From the NCBI RefSeq assembly GCF_037996825.1, contig NZ_JBBNAC010000001.1, positions 3,224,001 through 3,288,000 on the forward strand: DNA of 64,000 nucleotides, read 5' to 3'. Source of the DNA: Bdellovibrio sp. BCCA. GTDB lineage: Bacteria > Bdellovibrionota > Bdellovibrionia > Bdellovibrionales > Bdellovibrionaceae. Below the pieces are notes generated by a model that ran no database searches, was not told where the DNA came from, and saw nothing but the letters and a program-made list of their open reading frames with translations. Positions 11,025 through 20,360 of the stretch are shown piece by piece (positions within the stretch are counted from its first letter, which is position 1; the number at the start of each line of letters is the position of its first letter). Made by a program: the position numbers and the translations under genes.

Positions 11025-11187
11025 CTATCAAGATTGAAAGCAACACGGATGCCAACAGGACTCTGGTCGAGCGTCATTCATTGCAGTCCAACATATTTGA
11101 TTTCAGGCAATTTTTGCCTCCCCGGAACTTGTTTGCCGGGTAGTAATTCTATGACAGGAGTCAAAGTTTTGGCGTGAAGATTTGACG

Positions 11188-11193
11188 TATAAT
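11188..11193 (+). promoter_or_regulatory. Candidate -10 box for the csbD-like pair
   Basis: A perfect TATAAT lies 24 bases before the ATG of the first CsbD-like gene. No convincing -35 hexamer is present 16-18 bases upstream, so recognition by an alternative sigma factor or with an activator is possible. The gene also has a strong GGAGG ribosome-binding site at 11206-11210. Confidence 0.4.
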
Positions 11194-11216
11194 GAATTTA
11201 AAAAAGGAGGTTCCTT

Positions 11217-11498
11217 ATGAACAAAGATATCTTCCAAGGAAAGATCAAAGAAATTTCTGGAGAACTAAGAAAAAAATGGGGCGCTCTCACAGATGACGAT
11301 ATTCAAAGAACTAAAGGCAACGCAGAGGCCTTAAGTGGTCTAGTTCAACAAAAAGTAGGTCTCTCAAAAGAAGAAGCTTCACGGCAAGTAAACGACTTGA
11401 TGTCGAGCTGGGAAAGAAAGTTTGAAGCCGGCAAAGAAGAAGCCGCAGACAAACTTAACGCTGGTATCGATAAAATGAAAAATAAATTGTCTCATTAA
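11217..11498 (+). CDS. CsbD-like stress protein, copy 1
   Basis: A 93-residue soluble, highly charged protein of the CsbD family (general stress-response proteins of unknown biochemical role). The diagnostic features are FQGKIKEISGELRKKWGALTDDD at residues 5-27 (written here as one family block), a 'KGNAEALSGLVQQKVGLSKEEA' block and a C-terminal amphipathic helix. The ATG is preceded by AAAAAGGAGG. A paralogue follows 33 bases downstream, so this is a tandem duplication within one transcript. Confidence 0.85.
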   Translation: MNKDIFQGKIKEISGELRKKWGALTDDDIQRTKGNAEALSGLVQQKVGLSKEEASRQVNDLMSSWERKFEAGKEEAADKLNAGIDKMKNKLSH

Positions 11499-11531
11499 TT
11501 GGCCGAGCTTCGAGAGAAAAAGGGAGAATTT

Positions 11532-11828
11532 ATGGACAAACAATTCTTAGAAGGAAAATTCAACGAAGTCTCAGGAGCCTTAAAACAAAAATTCAGCAAT
11601 TTAAATTTGAGCGATGAAGAACTAAAAAAAGCCATGTCGAGTCCCGATGAGCTTGTGAACTTAGTTTCACAAAAAACCGGTCTTCCTCCAGAAGAAGCCC
11701 GCCAAAAAGTACATCAGGCCCTCGATACACTTCACATCAGCGATGAACAAGCCAAAGGTTTCATGGCTAAATTCGCTGATAAAGTAGAGAGCAAATACGC
11801 TGAATTTAAAAACAAGCTCACCCACTAA
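11532..11828 (+). CDS. CsbD-like stress protein, copy 2
   Basis: A 98-residue paralogue of the preceding gene: EGKFNEVSGALKQKFSNLN then LSDEELKKAMSSPDELVNLV and KTGLPPEEARQKV line up with the first copy. ATG 11532 is chosen because AGGGAG lies 5 bases upstream; an in-frame TTG at 11499 directly after the first stop lacks a site and would add 11 unrelated residues. It is acidic/basic mixed, has no signal peptide and is presumably cytoplasmic. A bidirectional terminator follows. Confidence 0.82.
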   Translation: MDKQFLEGKFNEVSGALKQKFSNLNLSDEELKKAMSSPDELVNLVSQKTGLPPEEARQKVHQALDTLHISDEQAKGFMAKFADKVESKYAEFKNKLTH

Positions 11829-11834
11829 GCTTAA

Positions 11835-11859
11835 AAGAGGGTCCTTAACGGGCCCTCTT
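11835..11859. terminator. Bidirectional intrinsic terminator
   Basis: Ten-pair stem AAGAGGGTCC / GGGCCCTCTT (one G-U pair) with a TTAAC loop, followed by a T-rich tail on the plus strand and TTTT on the minus strand. It separates the csbD-like pair from the convergent gene at 11862-12185. Confidence 0.8.
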
Positions 11860-11861
11860 CT

Positions 11862-12185
11862 TTATTCTTCACCCGTCATTTCAATTCGCACGACTTTGCA
11901 AGTAGGTTCATTCCCAACTACGACCACACCGTAACTCAAGGAACCACACTCATCCAAGTCTTCCGGTGAACAATGCAATACAGAAACATCGTAAACCGTG
12001 ACCATGCGACCGTACTTAAGTTCTCTAGACACGATATGGGCCGCCGGAGATTCAATCACAGATTCTTCGCGGTCGGTTTGTGCTTGCTCCACCGCCGCGT
12101 GAATCGCCTTGGTTTCACAAACATTTGCAGACGCTAAAGACGCAAACAAAGAAAGACCTGCCACAGCCAAAATTTCTTTTTTCAT
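11862..12185 (-). CDS. Small secreted protein, unknown function
   Basis: A 107-residue protein with a clear signal peptide (MKKEILAVAGLSLFASLASA, cleavage before NVCETK). The mature part is about 87 residues with four Cys (NVCETK, LHCSPEDLDECG, TCKVV), which could form two disulfides in the periplasm. It has no family I recognise. It is monocistronic, with a terminator directly downstream and the divergent protease gene at 12420. Confidence 0.7.
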   Translation of the reverse strand: MKKEILAVAGLSLFASLASANVCETKAIHAAVEQAQTDREESVIESPAAHIVSRELKYGRMVTVYDVSVLHCSPEDLDECGSLSYGVVVVGNEPTCKVVRIEMTGEE

Positions 12186-12272
12186 AAATCACCTCGGTAT
12201 GTTTAAAACAAAAGCTGTATATCGAACTCCACCTTTCGAAGCGATTGCATATAATCAAAGTTATTATTCACC

Positions 12273-12287
12273 CCAAGAATATCTTGG
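12273..12287. repeat. Inverted repeat in divergent intergenic region
   Basis: CCAAGA-ATA-TCTTGG, six-base perfect arms with a three-base centre, in the 234-base gap between the small secreted protein and the protease gene. It could be an operator. No other copy was noticed. Confidence 0.35.
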
Positions 12288-12419
12288 AAACACCGCCCTC
12301 TTTTGTCCCTCTGACGAGATTTCGACAGCTTCAAGGCATTGACCTTCATTTAATTGGACCTGACAGGCTTTAAACGGGTCTTTCTTTTGCTCTTAAAACT
12401 TTGGATAGGGAGAGTTAAC

Positions 12420-13331
12420 ATGAAACTTTTTTCTAATATTGCCGTCCTTGCACTTCCTCTGATTTTGGCAGCTCAAACAAGCTTTGCAAAATGCACGGAC
12501 TGCACAACTTTGGAGTTCGGAAAAAAGGTTCAAGTTCCTCTTCTAAGTCCGCTTCTTCCCTTGGGTTCAAAAGGCAAATTGGAATACATCGCTCACTTGG
12601 GTGTGGATCTTTTTAGAATGCCAACGCAAGAAGAACCCGCGACCATTGCGTTTCTTGCCACCCCTTCTGCGGATCTTATGAGCCGCTATAAAAAACATTT
12701 TGATGAAGGCACACTCGGCATCTTTTTGACTGAAAGAGCGACCTACAATCGCGTTGAACACCCGACCATTCTTTTGATTGAAAGTGCAGACGCCTGGACA
12801 ATCACCCATGAATTCATGCATTACCTTTTTGATCGCGCGCGCCTTTTGGAAGACCCCACTTCAGAGTCTCGCATTGTGAACAACATGACGGATGCTAAAG
12901 AAGATTTCTTCGGAACTTGGGACCGCTACAAAATGTTTGGTGGTTACGCAAACGAAGAACACAAGCAAGCAACCGTTGCGAATTTTGTGGCCTTTGCCGA
13001 TCTTCAACAACAAATTCTCTTGAGCTTTGAAATGGAAGAAATGGCCATCGAAAAGTTTTTGCGCCTAATTTACATTCATCATAAGCCCTTCGGTTTTGAT
13101 CAGAGCAGCTTTGATCGCAGCACTCGTTACATTCGCAGCACGGGTTCCAAAGCTTTGGATTACCTCAATGTGATGTTAAGCTCTTGCGACGATGTGAGAA
13201 ACTCGCTGTTGACTCAGGACCGTGAGCTGCTCGCAAAGCTCAACAAGACGTGTACGCAAGCCCAAGACTATAAAAATACGATTCTGAAAATCGGTAAAGA
13301 CCTTAACATTGAGTTTGAGACTCAACATTAA
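12420..13331 (+). CDS. Secreted HExxH-containing protein, putative zinc metalloprotease
   Basis: A 303-residue exported protein. ATG 12420 is preferred over an upstream in-frame start because GGGAGAG precedes it and it opens a good signal peptide (residues 1-23, ending TSFAKC). The mature protein contains WTITHEFMHYLF, with HEFMH at residues 130-134, a zinc-binding HExxH motif in a helix as in gluzincin/metzincin-type peptidases. No clear third-ligand motif is identifiable, so the clan is uncertain. Two CxxC cysteines (KCTDC) follow the cleavage site. Activity is an inference from one motif. Confidence 0.65.
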   Translation: MKLFSNIAVLALPLILAAQTSFAKCTDCTTLEFGKKVQVPLLSPLLPLGSKGKLEYIAHLGVDLFRMPTQEEPATIAFLATPSADLMSRYKKHFDEGTLGIFLTERATYNRVEHPTILLIESADAWTITHEFMHYLFDRARLLEDPTSESRIVNNMTDAKEDFFGTWDRYKMFGGYANEEHKQATVANFVAFADLQQQILLSFEMEEMAIEKFLRLIYIHHKPFGFDQSSFDRSTRYIRSTGSKALDYLNVMLSSCDDVRNSLLTQDRELLAKLNKTCTQAQDYKNTILKIGKDLNIEFETQH

Positions 13332-13409
13332 GCCTTTGAAAGGCATTCATTAACAATAACTATAATGAATATATGAATTGATTATTATACTTAATAAATC
13401 AATCCGACT

Positions 13410-13433
13410 AGAACCTTCCTTGTGGGAGGTTCT
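13410..13433 (+). promoter_or_regulatory. Hairpin sequestering the isnA ribosome-binding site
   Basis: AGAACCTTCC pairs with GGGAGGTTCT (ten pairs, one G-U) across a TTGT loop. The 3' arm contains the GGGAGG Shine-Dalgarno sequence of the isonitrile synthase gene, whose GTG starts two bases after the stem. No T-tract follows, so it is not a terminator. Its likely effect is to restrain translation until something opens it. Confidence 0.65.
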
Positions 13434-13435
13434 CC

Positions 13436-14368
13436 GTGAGACAAGTTTCCAATCAAATATTAAATCTACTCTTTGAGATTAGAAATCTTAGCCATCCGCT
13501 CACCGCTGCAGATCAAAACCAGGAGGCGCTTCATCGCGAGTTTCAATTAGCAAAAATTGAAGCTTACATGCAGGTCCAAGCGCCCATTCACATGGTGCTT
13601 CCGGCCTTTCCGGCAAAATCCCCCAACCCTCTTAAAACTTTAGGCAGCGAACCGGATCTCGGTGAAGTGTTGGCGCTGCAAAAACTCAACACTCTTTGCG
13701 AACAGATCGCTACAATATATTCTCCCGGAGCCGCCATCACCATCTGTTCTGACGGAAGAGTTTTTAGCGACGTAGTTCTTGTCAGTGACACGGATGTGGA
13801 TCGCTACGGTTATGAGATCAGCGAGATCATCGTAAAGCATGGCTTCAAAAATCTTTCCACCTTTAGTCTTGAAGATGTTTTTGACGGAAAGTCCTACGAT
13901 GAAATGCGCCAGCTGCTCACCAAAGAGTTCGCGGAAGATCTAGAACTTTTGCGCGCCCGCACAAGAACGGAAAGTGACGCTTTGGCTCTTTTTAACGGCA
14001 TTCACCGCTTTATGTTTGAAGATCAACTGGCACTTTTTCCTGAGAGAAGTAAAAATCAATCTCGCGAAAAAGCCAAAGGCCTTGCTTATGAAGTCATTCG
14101 TCGCAGCAACGCCTGGAGCCGCGTGGTCGAAAAATACTTTCCAAACTCATTACGTCTTTCAATTCATCCGCAAAGCCTTCGTTCATCGAAAATCGGCGTG
14201 AGACTCTTGGACTCCAACGATCTTTGGAGAACCCCTTGGCATTCCGTCACGGTGTTTGACGGGAAACAATATTATTTAGCTCCTCGCTCTGAAGCGGAAG
14301 CTTTGGGCGGCGTTCTTAAGTATGCCGAAGACAAATATCCGTTTTACCAACTGCCGGAGGCTTTATGA
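13436..14368 (+). CDS. isnA: Isonitrile (isocyanide) synthase, PvcA/IsnA/DIT1 family
   Basis: Converts the amino group of an amino acid (Tyr or Trp in characterised members) to an isonitrile using ribulose 5-phosphate as carbon donor. The 310 residues carry the family hallmarks: LPAFPAKSPNPLKTLG at 55-70, PDLGEVLAL at 73-81, IYSPGA at 94-99, CSDGRVFSDVV at 104-114, SIHPQS at 242-247 and TPWHSV at 266-271. The GTG start has GGGAGG seven bases upstream, inside a hairpin. The stop overlaps the next ATG by four bases. It is the first gene of a four-gene operon whose members fit a glycosylated vinyl-isonitrile product. The substrate cannot be read from sequence. Confidence 0.93.
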   Translation: MRQVSNQILNLLFEIRNLSHPLTAADQNQEALHREFQLAKIEAYMQVQAPIHMVLPAFPAKSPNPLKTLGSEPDLGEVLALQKLNTLCEQIATIYSPGAAITICSDGRVFSDVVLVSDTDVDRYGYEISEIIVKHGFKNLSTFSLEDVFDGKSYDEMRQLLTKEFAEDLELLRARTRTESDALALFNGIHRFMFEDQLALFPERSKNQSREKAKGLAYEVIRRSNAWSRVVEKYFPNSLRLSIHPQSLRSSKIGVRLLDSNDLWRTPWHSVTVFDGKQYYLAPRSEAEALGGVLKYAEDKYPFYQLPEAL

Positions 14369-15147
14369 GAATAGAAAAACTAAAACCTTTCGGAGTGTGC
14401 CTGCACTTTGATAACACCCGCACACTGGAACAAATAAAAAAAACGGAAATCGAAGCTCTTTTACAAGAGCATAAGCTGATTCTTATAAGAGGTGTTGCTA
14501 AACCCGAACGCGACGATCTGCTTTCATTTTGCGAAAGCTTTCCAAAATCCAAAACTCTGAACTGGAGCTTTGGACCCGTTATGGAGATGAAAGAAAGCGA
14601 AGACCCGCAAAATTATTTATTTTCCCGAGAAGCCGTTCCTTTTCACTGGGACGGAGCCTTTCACTTTGTACCAGATTACTTGGTCTTCTCTTGTGTTCAA
14701 GCCCCGACAAACGGCGCAGGCGGCGAAACCCTTTTCGCGAACACTGAATTGATTTTCCAATCTGCTCCAGAGGAAAGAAAGACACTGTGGGCGCAAGTGG
14801 ATCTTAAATATGAAACAGCAAAGCTGGCTCATTATGGCGGGAGCATTTGTGGACCTCTTCTGCAAACTCATCCCCGAAATGGCAAAAACATTCTTCGTTT
14901 TGCAGAACCCGTGAATACAAAATTAAACCCCGTCACTCTGGATGTGATCGCAAAAGCGGAGCTTAATGCCGATGATCTTGTGAAAGATTTAACGGAAAGA
15001 ATTTACGCCGCTGAATTCTGTTATCGCCATGAATGGCAGGAAGGTGATTTGCTTTTAGCGGACAACCACTCCTTGGTTCATGGCAGAACCGCATTTGAAA
15101 AAAATTGCCCCAGACACTTAAGACGCATTCAACTTATTAAGGAATAA
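14365..15147 (+). CDS. isnB: Fe(II)/2-oxoglutarate oxygenase, PvcB/IsnB type (TauD family)
   Basis: Characterised partners of isonitrile synthases desaturate, or decarboxylate and desaturate, the amino-acid isonitrile to a vinyl isonitrile. The 260 residues form a TauD-like fold. Iron ligands are H94 and D96 (PFHWDGAF) and H239 (ADNHSLVHGRT); the 2OG-binding Arg is probably R250 or R253 (PRHLRRIQL). The NGAGGETLFAN strand is typical. The start overlaps isnA (ATGA) and the stop is 2 bases before the P450 gene, so the products are probably made together. Confidence 0.9.
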   Translation: MRIEKLKPFGVCLHFDNTRTLEQIKKTEIEALLQEHKLILIRGVAKPERDDLLSFCESFPKSKTLNWSFGPVMEMKESEDPQNYLFSREAVPFHWDGAFHFVPDYLVFSCVQAPTNGAGGETLFANTELIFQSAPEERKTLWAQVDLKYETAKLAHYGGSICGPLLQTHPRNGKNILRFAEPVNTKLNPVTLDVIAKAELNADDLVKDLTERIYAAEFCYRHEWQEGDLLLADNHSLVHGRTAFEKNCPRHLRRIQLIKE

Positions 15148-15149
15148 CC

Positions 15150-16346
15150 ATGGATCTTTACAGTCAAAAAATCCAGTCTACTCCCACAGAGTTTGCAAAT
15201 TATCTAAACGGCAAAGGTCCGATTTTTTGGTCGGAACCGGAACAGTTTTGGGTCATCACGGATCACGCTTTGGCTCAAGAAGCGCTAAAAAGCTCCCAAC
15301 TCAGCGCGGATCGCGGCCCCTATTTTATGTCTAAGATGTCGGGCTGTCCTTTCTCAAAGGTTGCCAACTTTTTTGGAGTTGTTTCTAAAATGATGGTGAA
15401 CAGTGATGCTCCCGAGCACACTCGCCGTCGCAAACTCGCAAGTGCCGGTATCAGTGACCACGTGATTGAACACTTTGCACCTCAAGTAAAAAAAGTGGTG
15501 GCAGGTCTTCTTGAGAAACAAACTTCGGGCACGTCCGTCGAATTTGTTTCGGACGTGGCTTTGCCGCTGCCAAACATTATTCTTGCAGATCTTTTTTCGA
15601 TTCCCGCAGAGAAGCGTCCTGATTTCTATCGTTGGGCCAATCACATGACTCAGTTTTTTGGCGGTGGCTCTGAAAACCTTATGATGGATGCTGAAAACGC
15701 AGACCGAGGAGCCCACGAACTTCGTGACTATTTTACGGAACTTATTCACAGTCGCAGGCACAACTCCGCAAACGATTTCATCAGCCATCTTTTGCGAAAT
15801 CAGGGAAACCTGGATGACAGCGAAGTGATTTCTCAGGCCGCAATTATGCTAGTTGCCGGAACGGTCACAACGACGGATCAGATCTGCAACAATCTTTACA
15901 GTCTTATCCAGTCAAATGTTTGGCCTTTGTTAGTCAAAGATCGCTCTTTGCTTGAGAACGCCATTGAAGAAGCCACTCGCTTAGATCCTGCCGTGAACTT
16001 TATTTTCCGTATTGTCAAAGAAGATATGACTCTTGGCGGGAAACAAATCGACGCAGGTCAGTTGATCTTCGTATCCACTCACGCCACGAATCGCGCTGCG
16101 GAGGTCTTTCCTGACGCAAATTCTTTTAACTTAGAACGCGAAAGAAACCCGCACCTTTCTTATGGCTCAGGTATTCATTACTGCTTAGGCGCAAGGCTCG
16201 GGCGTATTCAAATGAAAGAACTTTTCGGACAGATGCTCGAAAGGTATCCACAACTTACTTTGGATTCAACAAAACCGTCCCAGCGCAAACATCAAAGCCT
16301 TGCGTTTTCCGGATTTGAAACTCTTCACCTTCAATTGGGGATTTAA
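15150..16346 (+). CDS. Cytochrome P450
   Basis: Soluble class-I-type bacterial P450 of 398 residues. The ExxR motif is E274-A-T-R277, and the heme-binding loop is YGSGIHYCLGARLG with the axial Cys at 345. The C-helix segment SDAPEHTRRRKL (95 region) is normal. The I-helix reads LVAGTVTTTD (residues 234-243): the usual acidic residue before Thr (AGxE/DT) is Val239, which alters the standard proton-relay pair. Redox partners are not encoded in the operon; a [2Fe-2S] ferredoxin gene lies elsewhere at 36339. A tailoring role on the isonitrile product is inferred from its position between isnB and the glycosyltransferase. Confidence 0.93.
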   Translation: MDLYSQKIQSTPTEFANYLNGKGPIFWSEPEQFWVITDHALAQEALKSSQLSADRGPYFMSKMSGCPFSKVANFFGVVSKMMVNSDAPEHTRRRKLASAGISDHVIEHFAPQVKKVVAGLLEKQTSGTSVEFVSDVALPLPNIILADLFSIPAEKRPDFYRWANHMTQFFGGGSENLMMDAENADRGAHELRDYFTELIHSRRHNSANDFISHLLRNQGNLDDSEVISQAAIMLVAGTVTTTDQICNNLYSLIQSNVWPLLVKDRSLLENAIEEATRLDPAVNFIFRIVKEDMTLGGKQIDAGQLIFVSTHATNRAAEVFPDANSFNLERERNPHLSYGSGIHYCLGARLGRIQMKELFGQMLERYPQLTLDSTKPSQRKHQSLAFSGFETLHLQLGI

Positions 16347-16348
16347 AA

Positions 16349-17518
16349 ATGAAAATTCTATTTTGCCTTTTAGGAGAAACAGGTCACATCAATCCTTACA
16401 TCGGTCCCGCACAAGCACTGATCGCTCAAGGTCACGACGTTTTAGTCACTTCACCCGCGGATCTTTCCGAGAGAATGAAAAAATCGGGCATTCCATTTTC
16501 TAAAGATCTTTTAGCGCCTGAAGGCATGGCCCCGAAAGGAAAAGATCTTGTCGCCATGGTGGAAGATAAAAAGCAACATCGCGCCATGATCGAAGATTTT
16601 TTTCTAAAAGGAATCAGCGCACAAGTCGGACATTTCAAAGAATTTATTAAAAAAGAAAAGCCCACGGCAGTGATCGTCGATCCCATGAATTATCCTGCCG
16701 TGATCGCGGCACACCTTTTAGTTATTCCTTGGATTTCCATTTCAAGTTCTCTCACGTCTGTGATTCCAGACAGCTTAAACAGTGACGTCTTGGAATTGCT
16801 AAGGCTCGTGGCACCTGTTCGCGAAAAAATCTTTCAAGAGTTTTCCTTTTCACCGAAATTCCGCGCCATCGATTGCCTTTCTCCCCTCTTAAATATCACT
16901 TTTGCGACAGAAGAATTTATCGGCGACACACACGACGACGTTACCTTGGTGGGTCCGTCGGTCGCTTTACACGAGCGTGGCGATGAAGTTTCACTAAAAT
17001 CTTTGCCCTCAGACCGACCTATTATTTACGCTTCGTTTGGCAGTCAGGTATATTACTATCCTGAGCTTTTTAAAAAGATTCAAAGCGCTTGTGAAACTTT
17101 GCCTGTGCATCTTGTGATGTCCATTGGTGAACTGGCACACGAAGAAGGTTGGCAGGACCAAGAAGCTGTGAGCCTTTATCCCTATGCTCCCCAATTAGAA
17201 ATTTTAAAGAAAGCCTCGCTCTTTATCACGCACGGTGGAGCAAATTCCGTGATGGAGTCATTAAGAGCTGGAGTTCCTATGCTGATCAATCCACTTTGCA
17301 ACGATCAAGAACATCAAGCTTACTTTGTTGAAAAAAGCGGAGTCGGCAAAAAAATAAATTTAAAAGAGATAAGCGTGGAAGATCTTCGCTCGCATATTCT
17401 GACACTGCTAACAAATCAAAATATCAAAGAAAGAACCCAAGAGGTCTCCCAAAGTTATCAGGTGAACGGCTCAACCAAAGTGGCTGATTTAATCACGTCC
17501 ACTCTGGCAAGTTTATAA
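16349..17518 (+). CDS. UGT-like (GT1) glycosyltransferase
   Basis: Transfers a sugar from a nucleotide donor to a small acceptor. The protein has 389 residues in a GT-B fold: N-terminal acceptor domain with the catalytic-type His13 (GETGHINP), and C-terminal donor domain with APQLEILKKASLFITHGG, HGG at 295-297 and a final EHQAYFVEKSGVG segment. It belongs to the macrolide/flavonoid UGT group (MGT-like). It starts 2 bases after the P450 stop. Glycosyltransferases also accompany isnA/isnB in rhabduscin-type clusters, where the sugar is added to the tyrosine-derived phenol; the same role is inferred here. Confidence 0.9.
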   Translation: MKILFCLLGETGHINPYIGPAQALIAQGHDVLVTSPADLSERMKKSGIPFSKDLLAPEGMAPKGKDLVAMVEDKKQHRAMIEDFFLKGISAQVGHFKEFIKKEKPTAVIVDPMNYPAVIAAHLLVIPWISISSSLTSVIPDSLNSDVLELLRLVAPVREKIFQEFSFSPKFRAIDCLSPLLNITFATEEFIGDTHDDVTLVGPSVALHERGDEVSLKSLPSDRPIIYASFGSQVYYYPELFKKIQSACETLPVHLVMSIGELAHEEGWQDQEAVSLYPYAPQLEILKKASLFITHGGANSVMESLRAGVPMLINPLCNDQEHQAYFVEKSGVGKKINLKEISVEDLRSHILTLLTNQNIKERTQEVSQSYQVNGSTKVADLITSTLASL

Positions 17519-17522
17519 GACT

Positions 17523-18374
17523 TTATTGAGTCTCCGGACGGAGGTGGTTCTGAAGAATCCCTTGGATCTGATGAACGATCTCCGGATTTCCGGCGACGAT
17601 GGAATTTTTGTACGGATGGTATTTTTCCCCGCGGTACGTTTCAATAATGCCGCCGGCTTCTTCGACCAACAAAATTCCCGCAGCGGCATCCCACGGCTGA
17701 ATGTTGCGTTCCCAGTAACCATCAAACACACCGCGCGCCACTTGAGTAAGATCATACGCGGCAGCTCCGGGACGACGAACGCCTCGGCACTTACGCACCA
17801 TCTCGTCGAAAATTTTTAATTGTTCAGCAATCACGTTTTCGTGTTCAGAAACAAATCCTGTTGCGAGCAAAGCTTTTTTCAACTCATTGGTTTTGCTGAT
17901 TTGCAAACGACGGCCATTCACGAAAGCACCTTGCCCGCGAATCGCCGTGTAAGTTTCTTTGAGAATCGGCACATCAATCACTGCCAACTGAATTTGTCCG
18001 TTGATCTCCAATCCAAGGCTGATGCAAAAAATTGGAAAACGATGAATGTAGTTTGTTGTTCCATCCAGAGGATCCAAGATCCAACGCCCTTCGGGGCCTG
18101 CGGGAGCGATCTGGACCTTCGCCCCGGGCGCGTTTTGCGCGGCGAAAGTTTCTTCGCCTAAGAAGCCAATCGTAGGAAAATTTTTCTTAAGATGCTCCGC
18201 AATGACTCGTTCTGATTCTTTATCGGCTTCACTCACAAGACCTGCTTGAAACTTTTCTTCGATGTGCTCTAAGTTACCGAAATAATTGAGAAGGACCTCG
18301 CGCCCTAAGCTCACAGCCTTGATAGCTTGACTTAAGACCTGCTTCCAATCCATTGATTTTACGCCGTTTTCCAT
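17523..18374 (-). CDS. suhB: Inositol-1-monophosphatase family protein (SuhB-like)
   Basis: Mg-dependent sugar-phosphate phosphatase family, 283 residues. Metal-binding motifs are all present: GEET at 73-76, DPLDGTTNYIHRFP at 101-114 and WDAAAGILLVEEAGG near 228. Substrate could be inositol 1-phosphate or another small phosphate ester, and SuhB also has RNA-related roles in some bacteria. It is convergent with the isonitrile operon (4 bases apart), so it is not part of it. An alternative start at Met8 exists; the first ATG has GGGAAAAG upstream. Confidence 0.9.
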   Translation of the reverse strand: MENGVKSMDWKQVLSQAIKAVSLGREVLLNYFGNLEHIEEKFQAGLVSEADKESERVIAEHLKKNFPTIGFLGEETFAAQNAPGAKVQIAPAGPEGRWILDPLDGTTNYIHRFPIFCISLGLEINGQIQLAVIDVPILKETYTAIRGQGAFVNGRRLQISKTNELKKALLATGFVSEHENVIAEQLKIFDEMVRKCRGVRRPGAAAYDLTQVARGVFDGYWERNIQPWDAAAGILLVEEAGGIIETYRGEKYHPYKNSIVAGNPEIVHQIQGILQNHLRPETQ

Positions 18375-19334: not shown

Positions 19335-19361
19335 CCCACGCCTTAAACGTGGGTTTTTTTA
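19335..19361 (+). terminator. Intrinsic terminator after the SPOR gene
   Basis: CCCACG / CGTGGG stem with a seven-base CCTTAAA loop followed by seven T. It also overlaps the end of the convergent esterase gene. Confidence 0.85.
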
Positions 19362-20360
19362 TTTTCCCTGACGATTCATTCCATGTACGCGCACCGCAAA
19401 GTCCCACGCCGTTTCGCCCTGCATATCTCGATAACCTACTGAAGAATCTCTCAATAAAAACGTATGCATTGTTGTATCAGCTATCCACGTCTTGACGTTT
19501 GTAAATGGAGCCGCAATCGCAGCAATTCCTTGAGGTCCTAATACCAACTCACGATGGGCATCAGGAGAGATATTGCCAAAGACAATGGACATCACAAGAT
19601 CCTTGGTCGACTGTAAAATGCCGACGCTCCAGGTGCTGTATCTTAAGAAAACAGGCCCCATGTGTGGCGCCAAGAATCCATCGTCTTCTTCAAAAGGAAA
19701 ATCAATCTTGCGAAAATTGGCTTTATAATCGTGATTCAAAGCAGGTGTGAACTTAAGCCAAAAATTTTTCCCAAAGTGCAGACCCGGCGAATCCGCAATC
19801 AAAGTCTTATGTGCCGAAGAAGATAAATAAGGCTCTAAGGTGACACCGTGAAGAAACGCTCCTAACGCTCCGGCAGAATAACCCCATACGGTCACGTCCT
19901 TGGCGTTTTTAAAGTTGAGAATATTCTGCTGCTGCAAATATTGAAATGTCAGAACCACATTGTTATAACCGTCGTGATAAAGTAAAACCGAAGCTTGATA
20001 GGAAGCCACGTGTTGGCCGGCATGCACGTCTCCGGTGCAATAAGGTAAAAACAATGCCGTGTGCTGATTCCACGGATTGTTGGCGATGCCGTCATTCGCT
20101 AAAACGGAAGTAGGCGCTTCTTCGAGAGGCTCAAGACTTGTAAGCGGACTTTTCCCGTAACAAGTTCCTTCCGACCAACAAGCACCTCCTCCCATGAATT
20201 CCACGAGTAGTTTGTCAGCGTCTTTTCGATCTAAAAAGACGCTGTAACTCTGTCCATTACCGCAGACCGCGCCGGGTATTGTGATTTTCTGCCAGGTTCG
20301 GGCTTCTGCGAGTGAAATGGAAAAACTGATGAAAAGAAGGATGTATTTAAATGTTTTCAT
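19359..20360 (-). CDS. Secreted pectinacetylesterase/Notum-family esterase
   Basis: A 333-residue alpha/beta hydrolase of the pectinacetylesterase (PAE/Notum) family with a signal peptide (residues 1-20, ending LAEART). Family features are the N-terminal LLVEFMGGGACWSEGTCYG oxyanion region, LFLPYCTGDVHAG, and the nucleophile elbow VWGYSAGALGAFLHG with Ser in GYSAGA. Such enzymes deacylate carbohydrate or protein O-esters; in a predator, prey-polymer deacylation is possible but is only inference. It is monocistronic and ends against the SPOR-gene terminator. Confidence 0.82.
   Translation of the reverse strand: MKTFKYILLFISFSISLAEARTWQKITIPGAVCGNGQSYSVFLDRKDADKLLVEFMGGGACWSEGTCYGKSPLTSLEPLEEAPTSVLANDGIANNPWNQHTALFLPYCTGDVHAGQHVASYQASVLLYHDGYNNVVLTFQYLQQQNILNFKNAKDVTVWGYSAGALGAFLHGVTLEPYLSSSAHKTLIADSPGLHFGKNFWLKFTPALNHDYKANFRKIDFPFEEDDGFLAPHMGPVFLRYSTWSVGILQSTKDLVMSIVFGNISPDAHRELVLGPQGIAAIAAPFTNVKTWIADTTMHTFLLRDSSVGYRDMQGETAWDFAVRVHGMNRQGK

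What the first reader, a model, noticed from the sequence alone, without database searches (positions are those of the whole stretch)
13410..17518. Isonitrile natural-product operon: isnA-isnB-P450-glycosyltransferase
Four tightly spaced plus-strand genes encode an isonitrile synthase (CSDGRVFSD, PAFPAKSPNP), a PvcB/IsnB-like Fe/2OG oxygenase (H94/D96/H239), a P450 and a UGT glycosyltransferase. Established: in Xenorhabdus/Photorhabdus isnA, isnB and a glycosyltransferase make rhabduscin, a phenoloxidase inhibitor, and byelyankacin is a related glycoside. The P450 here is an addition to that set. Inference: the product is a glycosylated, oxidised aryl vinyl isonitrile with a role in copper-enzyme inhibition, metal binding or prey interaction. 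Isonitriles bind Cu and heme, which would fit a predator attacking prey respiratory enzymes.
Basis: partly seen in the sequence, partly recalled or inferred. Interest (0 to 1): 0.85.

Follow-up and report, generated by a model that had tools for sequence, protein, structure and literature searches.

The report
P450-coupled isonitrile operon in Bdellovibrio
A predatory bacterium carries a four-gene operon that very probably makes a sugar-decorated isonitrile (a reactive, metal-binding small molecule), and it belongs to an undescribed branch of such pathways, found across its phylum, in which a cytochrome P450 follows the two standard enzymes.

Summary
Four intact plus-strand genes (13436-17518) encode a PvcA/IsnA-family isonitrile synthase, an IsnB/PvcB-type Fe/2OG enzyme, a heme-ligating P450 and an MGT/UGT glycosyltransferase. 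A 4-base overlap and two 2-base gaps make one operon very likely. Genome kdesi has the same four genes in the same order at another site; a third Bdellovibrio has the flanking genes adjacent with nothing between. Bdellovibrionota hold two distinct isonitrile cluster types. In type II (22 clusters, including genomes that look like HD100 and Tiberius) isnAB is followed by an FAD monooxygenase, and its IsnA sits with PvcA and the solved IsnA. In type I (13 clusters, including this window) isnAB is followed by a P450. Type I IsnA is a separate, strongly supported clade, its IsnB fits neither published product signature, and its P450 lacks the usual I-helix acid. So this is not simply rhabduscin plus a P450; substrate and product are open. 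A hairpin masks the isnA ribosome-binding site and recurs with a different sequence in kdesi. A role in predation is untested, and the patchy distribution argues against a core one.

The parts
13410..13433 (+). RNA hairpin AGAACCTTCC-TTGT-GGGAGGTTCT; the 3' arm contains the isnA Shine-Dalgarno sequence (GGGAGG, 13424-13429)
   Evidence: Folds at about -15 kcal/mol. Exposing the SD costs 15.1 kcal/mol; none of 202 control gene leaders reaches this. kdesi has a different-sequence hairpin in the same place, cost 15.9
13436..14368 (+). isnA, isonitrile synthase (PvcA/IsnA/DIT1 family), 310 aa, GTG start
   Evidence: PF05141 3e-78; PDB 3e59 PvcA 2e-64; invariant motifs LPAFP-KS, SDGR-F, RLSIHP, W-TPWH shared with both cluster types; P450-type clade
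14365..15147 (+). isnB, Fe(II)/2-oxoglutarate desaturase of the IsnB/PvcB group, with a third signature: A98-F99-H100 and Ala in the RFAEP motif (PIsnB position 188)
   Evidence: TauD 1e-38; PDB 3eat and 7tcl; AF2 model pLDDT 92, top fold hits 7tcl, 3eat, 4ylm; signature columns
15150..16346 (+). cytochrome P450, 398 aa; heme Cys345; I-helix AGTVTT without the usual acid
   Evidence: PF00067; closest solved sequence CYP109E1; conserved adjacency to isnAB in 13 clusters; motif alignment
16349..17518 (+). glycosyltransferase, GT1/MGT (YjiC-like), 389 aa
   Evidence: UDPGT 1e-20; TIGR01426 1.5e-45 (below its subfamily cutoff); PDB YjiC 8e-31; 55% identical to the fourth gene in kdesi
13377..13402 (.). 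imperfect dyad TTGATTATTA-TACT-TAATAAATCAA upstream of the hairpin, a possible operator or promoter region (not tested)
   Evidence: sequence
12354..13331 (+). left boundary gene: orphan, probably secreted, peptidase-like protein (HEFMH motif); not part of the operon
   Evidence: no Pfam hit; adjoins IMPase directly in G017, with no isn genes between
17523..18374 (-). right boundary gene: inositol monophosphatase family, convergent; not part of the operon
   Evidence: PF00459 5e-65; present in 24 of 24 Bdellovibrio genomes

Best explanation
The four genes form one operon for a glycosylated, P450-oxidised aryl isonitrile. Inferred steps: IsnA joins the amino nitrogen of an aromatic amino acid (Tyr or Trp) to a carbon from ribulose-5-phosphate to give the isonitrile acid. 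IsnB then removes a side-chain hydrogen with Fe(IV)-oxo and installs the C=C bond; whether CO2 is lost is open. The P450 oxidises the aryl or vinyl isonitrile (hydroxylation, epoxidation or coupling). The GT puts a sugar on an oxygen, possibly the one set by the P450, which stabilises, solubilises or helps export the product. The operon is the Bdellovibrio form of a P450-coupled isonitrile lineage that is widespread in Bdellovibrionota and distinct from the FAD-coupled lineage. The most likely use is metal or heme-copper interference towards competitors or prey, or metal handling. Translation of isnA is probably restrained by the hairpin over its ribosome-binding site. Shown: gene content, order, homology, conservation, lineage split, signatures. 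Inferred: substrate, product, biological role.
For: Family assignments and the IsnB fold. Same four genes, same order, in kdesi at 64/60/64/55% identity. isnA-isnB-P450 adjacency in 13 clusters of the phylum, although P450 genes are rare in the genus (10 of 24 genomes). IsnA P450-type clade 100/99, with matching P450 groupings (window+kdesi)+G275, L060+L062, L053+L056, L054+L055. IsnB signature A-F-[H/Y/L] plus A188 in all type I clusters versus M-[Y/F]-R plus mostly N in type II. Purifying selection: dN/dS about 0.06-0.15 in two close pairs; dS saturated with dN 0.30-0.42 between window and kdesi. Hairpin over the isnA SD. GTs of the same superfamily also flank two distant isnA loci, G069 and G167.
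Against: No transcript, enzyme or metabolite data. The GT is in the same operon as the P450 only in window and kdesi, so it is a lineage add-on. Monoglycoside isonitriles such as rhabduscin need no P450. No transporter or resistance gene lies in the operon. Patchy distribution (42 of 368 genomes) speaks against an essential role in predation. Cyanobacterial Trp-type synthases could not be placed in the tree.
Confidence: 0.75

Rival explanations
1. Rhabduscin/byelyankacin-type pathway: a tyrosine vinyl isonitrile glycoside, with the P450 a minor decorating enzyme. It would act as an inhibitor of copper enzymes such as phenoloxidases.
For: isnA-isnB plus a GT is the rhabduscin gene set (PMC6386379); IsnB is close to P.IsnB by sequence and fold.
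Against: IsnA lies outside the side of the tree that holds PvcA and the solved IsnA. IsnB has A-F-H and A where vinyl-isonitrile enzymes have K/R and N/H (criteria of PMC9467999); changing M-Y-K to A-F-A in PIsnB abolished the ligand-induced stabilisation. The P450, not the GT, is the conserved third gene.
Confidence: 0.25
2. The P450 couples two isonitrile units oxidatively, as proposed for XanG in xanthocillin and as Dit2 does in dityrosine, and the GT glycosylates the dimer.
For: P450s partner isocyanide synthases in fungal xan and dit clusters (PMC5974471; PMC10153163). A Streptomyces plasmid has a P450 beside an isocyanide synthase. Fold neighbours include a phenol-coupling P450, DmlH 8w6z. 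The missing I-helix acid suggests non-canonical oxidation.
Against: The closest solved P450s are CYP109-type hydroxylases and the fold match is not specific. The fungal P450s were not compared by sequence here.
Confidence: 0.15
3. The P450 is a non-catalytic activator of the glycosyltransferase, as in DesVII/DesVIII pairs.
For: The P450 has a weak hit to TIGR04515 (P450-derived GT activator) and the GT to TIGR04516.
Against: Scores are far below cutoffs (131 against 343; 63 against 440). The heme cysteine is intact. The P450 occurs without any GT in most type I clusters.
Confidence: 0.03
4. Paerucumarin-like pathway giving an isocyanocoumarin through an isocyanoacrylate.
For: PvcA and PvcB are the best solved homologues by sequence.
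Against: No PvcC/PvcD-type flavin enzymes in the operon; IsnB lacks the PvcB-type L and C residues.
Confidence: 0.05

Closest known systems
Rhabduscin cluster isnA-isnB-GT (Xenorhabdus, Photorhabdus)
   Same: Isonitrile synthase, Fe/2OG desaturase and glycosyltransferase in a compact cluster
   Different: No P450 there; here IsnA lies in another deep clade than the solved IsnA and IsnB lacks the PIsnB-type residues K107/N188
pvcABCD (paerucumarin, Pseudomonas aeruginosa)
   Same: PvcA and PvcB homologues; LysR regulator PtxR adjacent there (PMC3639982), and a LysR gene directly upstream of isnA in kdesi
   Different: P450 and GT instead of PvcC/PvcD; IsnB lacks PvcB-type L and C residues; no LysR beside the window operon
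FAD-type isonitrile clusters of Bdellovibrionota (type II here)
   Same: Same phylum, isnA-isnB core, LysR often adjacent
   Different: FAD monooxygenase (the HD100-like copy matches NF005531/PRK07190) instead of P450; separate IsnA branch; IsnB of M-Y-R/N type
Fungal xan and dit clusters (XanB-XanG, Dit1-Dit2)
   Same: Isocyanide synthase partnered with a P450
   Different: Eukaryotic P450s proposed to dimerise; synthase and dioxygenase are fused in XanB; not compared by sequence here
Hymenobacter plasmid isnA-isnB clusters (pHsw1 and DG01 plasmid)
   Same: IsnA sister to the P450-type clade; IsnB also has the A-F and A signature (L021)
   Different: IsnA ORF with about 230 extra residues, IsnB about 590 aa, FAD-dependent oxidoreductase instead of P450

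Membership tests
Isonitrile synthase family (PF05141, DIT1/PvcA) | Whole-protein score above the Pfam cutoff | tested here: met
   263.5 bits against cutoff 26.4
Isonitrile synthase family (PF05141, DIT1/PvcA) | Makes an isonitrile from an aromatic amino acid and ribulose-5-phosphate | not testable with these tools
   needs enzyme assay
PvcA equivalog (NCBIfam NF045653, L-tyrosine isonitrile synthase) | Score above the equivalog cutoff of 600 | tested here: not met
   232.6 bits; the FAD-type HD100-like protein also fails, 268.5
Vinyl-isonitrile (PIsnB-type) desaturase | K or R at PIsnB position 107 and N or H at 188 | tested here: not met
   His and Ala in the window; all type I clusters lack both residues; criteria from PMC9467999
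Isocyanoacrylate (PvcB-type) desaturase | L at position 107 and C at 188 | tested here: not met
   His and Ala in the window
Fe/2OG oxygenase of the IsnB/PvcB group | Fe ligands H-x-D...H, carboxylate-anchoring Arg, best fold match to IsnB/PvcB | tested here: met
   H94, D96, H239 and Arg at PIsnB position 265; 7tcl and 3eat are the top fold hits
Rhabduscin-type cluster | isnA-isnB-GT, with synthase related to the rhabduscin IsnA | tested here: not met
   GT present, but IsnA falls in a different deep clade from PvcA and the solved IsnA 9dhm, used here as proxy, and IsnB residues differ
Catalytic cytochrome P450 | Heme-ligand Cys motif, ExxR, I-helix AGx(D/E)T(T/S) | tested here: inconclusive
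   Cys345 and E274-x-x-R277 present; I-helix Thr present but the acid is V239, and V/A/I in all 13
P450-derived GT activator (TIGR04515, DesVIII-like) | Score above cutoff 343; paired GT above TIGR04516 cutoff 440 | tested here: not met
   131 and 63 bits

The most novel reading that the evidence does not exclude
Bdellovibrionota hold a third class of IsnB chemistry: a P450-coupled isonitrile lineage with a reshaped aryl pocket that acts on a different aromatic substrate (for example Trp) or gives a different desaturation, so that the P450 supplies the oxygen that a GT or acyltransferase then decorates. Expression is held back by an RNA hairpin over the isnA ribosome-binding site that keeps its structure while its sequence changes.
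Probability: 0.35. Interest if true: 0.72.

Novelty: new variant of a known kind. Interest (0 to 1): 0.55.

Why it matters
Isonitriles bind heme iron and copper, and some kill Gram-negative bacteria. A P450-coupled isonitrile lineage in a phylum known for predators would be a new source of such compounds and would give predatory bacteria a chemical weapon or metal tool that appears undescribed. The comparison also gives a sequence handle (A-F-H/Y plus A188) for predicting a third IsnB class. If two contig lengths do identify HD100 and Tiberius, the model predator itself carries the FAD-type cluster, so a role in predation can be tested by simple gene deletion.

Tried and rejected
Known RNA family for the leader hairpin: Rfam gave no credible hit. 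P450 as GT activator: scores far below cutoffs, heme Cys intact. LysR beside the window operon: none; the nearest homologue of the kdesi LysR in the genome is 39% identical and at 913 kb, so not assigned. Recent foreign origin from base composition: GC of the operon region (0.44-0.46) equals its surroundings, so no sign. PF05141 control search: no hit in 14 well-known genomes. Literature: no paper in the held library links Bdellovibrio to isonitrile biosynthesis. The P450 tree accidentally held three non-P450 neighbour proteins and is used only for groupings inside type I.
Full report
What is there. The window lies on a 3.80-Mb contig of a Bdellovibrio-genus genome. Genes at 13436-14368, 14365-15147, 15150-16346 and 16349-17518 are intact, co-directional and overlap or nearly touch. 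Pfam, NCBIfam and PDB searches identify an isonitrile synthase (PF05141, 3e-78; PvcA 3e59, 2e-64), an Fe/2OG oxygenase closest to PvcB and P.IsnB, a P450 and an MGT/YjiC-like glycosyltransferase. An AlphaFold model of IsnB (pLDDT 92) has P.IsnB 7tcl and PvcB 3eat/4ylm as its first three fold matches. The P450 model matches ordinary class I bacterial P450s, CYP109E1 first.

One unit, gained or lost as a unit. Genome kdesi (recorded as B. bacteriovorus) has the same four genes in the same order, with 4-bp overlaps at all three junctions, at 64, 60, 64 and 55% protein identity. Synonymous sites are saturated between the two while dN is only 0.30-0.42, and closer pairs of related clusters give dN/dS of about 0.06-0.15, so the genes are under purifying selection. 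In the window the operon lies between a peptidase-like gene and an inositol monophosphatase gene. In genome G017 these two genes adjoin directly (about 20 bp apart, same relative orientation) with no isn genes. Other relatives have other genes at this spot, and in kdesi the operon sits elsewhere, with a LysR gene directly upstream. Base composition shows no recent foreign origin.

Two lineages in the phylum. isnA occurs in 42 of 368 Bdellovibrionota genomes and 10 of 66 in the family. Neighbourhoods fall into two types: isnA-isnB-P450 (type I, 13 with the window) and isnA-isnB-FAD monooxygenase (type II, 22); the rest are cut by contig ends or unclear. Type I tailoring genes after the P450 differ: GT in window and kdesi; a flavin amine-oxidase-like gene in G275; a small protein in several f12 genomes and G238, a weak GNAT match in one case; an MFS gene in G156. 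Two loci (G069, G167) have an MGT-like GT behind a divergent LysR. In the IsnA tree the P450-type sequences form one clade (100/99) with window+kdesi+G275 nested (99/90); Hymenobacter is its sister. PvcA and the solved IsnA 9dhm are on the other side, with type II (99/93). P450 groupings inside type I match the IsnA groupings, as do the identity ranks of IsnB. Since only 10 of 24 Bdellovibrio genomes have any P450, the adjacency is not chance.

Signatures. Kim et al. (PMC9467999) forecast IsnB products from two positions: K/R107 with N/H188 for vinyl isonitriles, L107 with C188 for isocyanoacrylates. All 22 type II IsnBs have R at 107, and N (17), C (4) or S (1) at 188. Every type I IsnB has A-F at 105-106, then H, Y or (once) L, and A at 188. 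This is a third pattern. In PIsnB, replacing M105-Y106-K107 by A-F-A removed the stabilisation by ligand, so the aryl pocket of type I is probably shaped for something else. A larger ring such as indole is my inference, not a result. The authors also report that single changes at the two positions did not switch the product, so the signature is a marker, not a mechanism. The type I P450s all have V, A or I where most P450s have the I-helix acid, with the threonine and heme cysteine kept; this hints at an altered proton relay but does not name a reaction.

Leader hairpin. The 24 bases 13410-13433 form a ten-pair hairpin whose 3' arm is the isnA Shine-Dalgarno. kdesi has a different hairpin in the same place. 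The cost to expose the SD is 15.1 and 15.9 kcal/mol; none of 202 control leaders from the same loci reaches this. Across isnA leaders of the phylum the tendency is weaker but present (Mann-Whitney p 0.005 by SD cost, 0.017 by hairpin energy). The controls are mechanical ORFs and start choice was automatic, so the phylum-wide claim is moderate; the claim for window and kdesi is stronger, though the dinucleotide-shuffle z-score of the window segment alone is only -2.0. Different sequence with the same pairing favours an RNA role over a protein operator. Rfam has no match.

How it most likely works. IsnA makes an aromatic isonitrile acid, IsnB desaturates it, the P450 oxidises it and the GT adds a sugar. 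In rhabduscin the GT can use the tyrosine phenol and needs no P450; a conserved P450 ahead of varied tailoring genes suggests that the P450 makes the group that is decorated. P450s that dimerise tyrosine isonitriles in fungi are a serious rival (PMC5974471; PMC10153163). Targets known for isonitriles are copper (chalkophores, phenoloxidase), heme and some active-site cysteines (PMC11290450; PMC6386379); which applies here is unknown. Patchy occurrence argues for an accessory use.

Limits. Cyanobacterial Trp-isonitrile enzymes and the rhabduscin enzymes of Xenorhabdus could not be fetched (9dhm stands as a proxy), and other phyla were searched only through plasmids and one narrow genome scan. 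HD100 and Tiberius are named from contig lengths (3,782,950 and 3,988,594 bp) that I recall, not from records.

Noticed in passing
L016 (G003:C1:1375480-1376400) and L018 (G009:C1:1516417-1517253): Genomes whose lengths match those I recall for B. bacteriovorus HD100 and Tiberius carry an FAD-type isnA-isnB cluster with a divergent LysR gene, so the model predator may make an isonitrile too.
   Followed up: partly
window 11077-17523: The interval between a flagellar gene block and the inositol monophosphatase gene is a variable spot: relatives carry different genes there, and G017 has the two boundary genes of the operon side by side.
   Followed up: partly
L011 7902-7922: Between LysR and isnA in kdesi lies a palindrome ATAGGT-TTTT-ACCTAT, a candidate operator absent from the window.
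   Followed up: no
L013-L018, L064, L066, L078 isnA leaders: Many FAD-type leaders share an AT-rich motif like GTCATTTTATTTAT or ATTATATTTAT upstream of the hairpin, a possible common promoter or regulator site.
   Followed up: no
window 11217-11828: Two tandem small genes, the first CsbD-like and the second similar to it, next to the flagellar block.
   Followed up: no
G000 contig C2: The genome has a second contig of about 209 kb (4,013,063 minus 3,804,024), possibly a large plasmid, which I would find unusual for Bdellovibrio.
   Followed up: no
window 19359-20360: Pectinacetylesterase/Notum-like hydrolase gene in a predator genome, conserved in several relatives beside the SPOR-domain gene.
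   Followed up: no
L020 and L021: Hymenobacter plasmids carry isnA-isnB-FAD oxidoreductase clusters whose IsnA has about 230 extra residues; the IsnB of L021 has the same A-F/A signature as the P450 type.
   Followed up: partly
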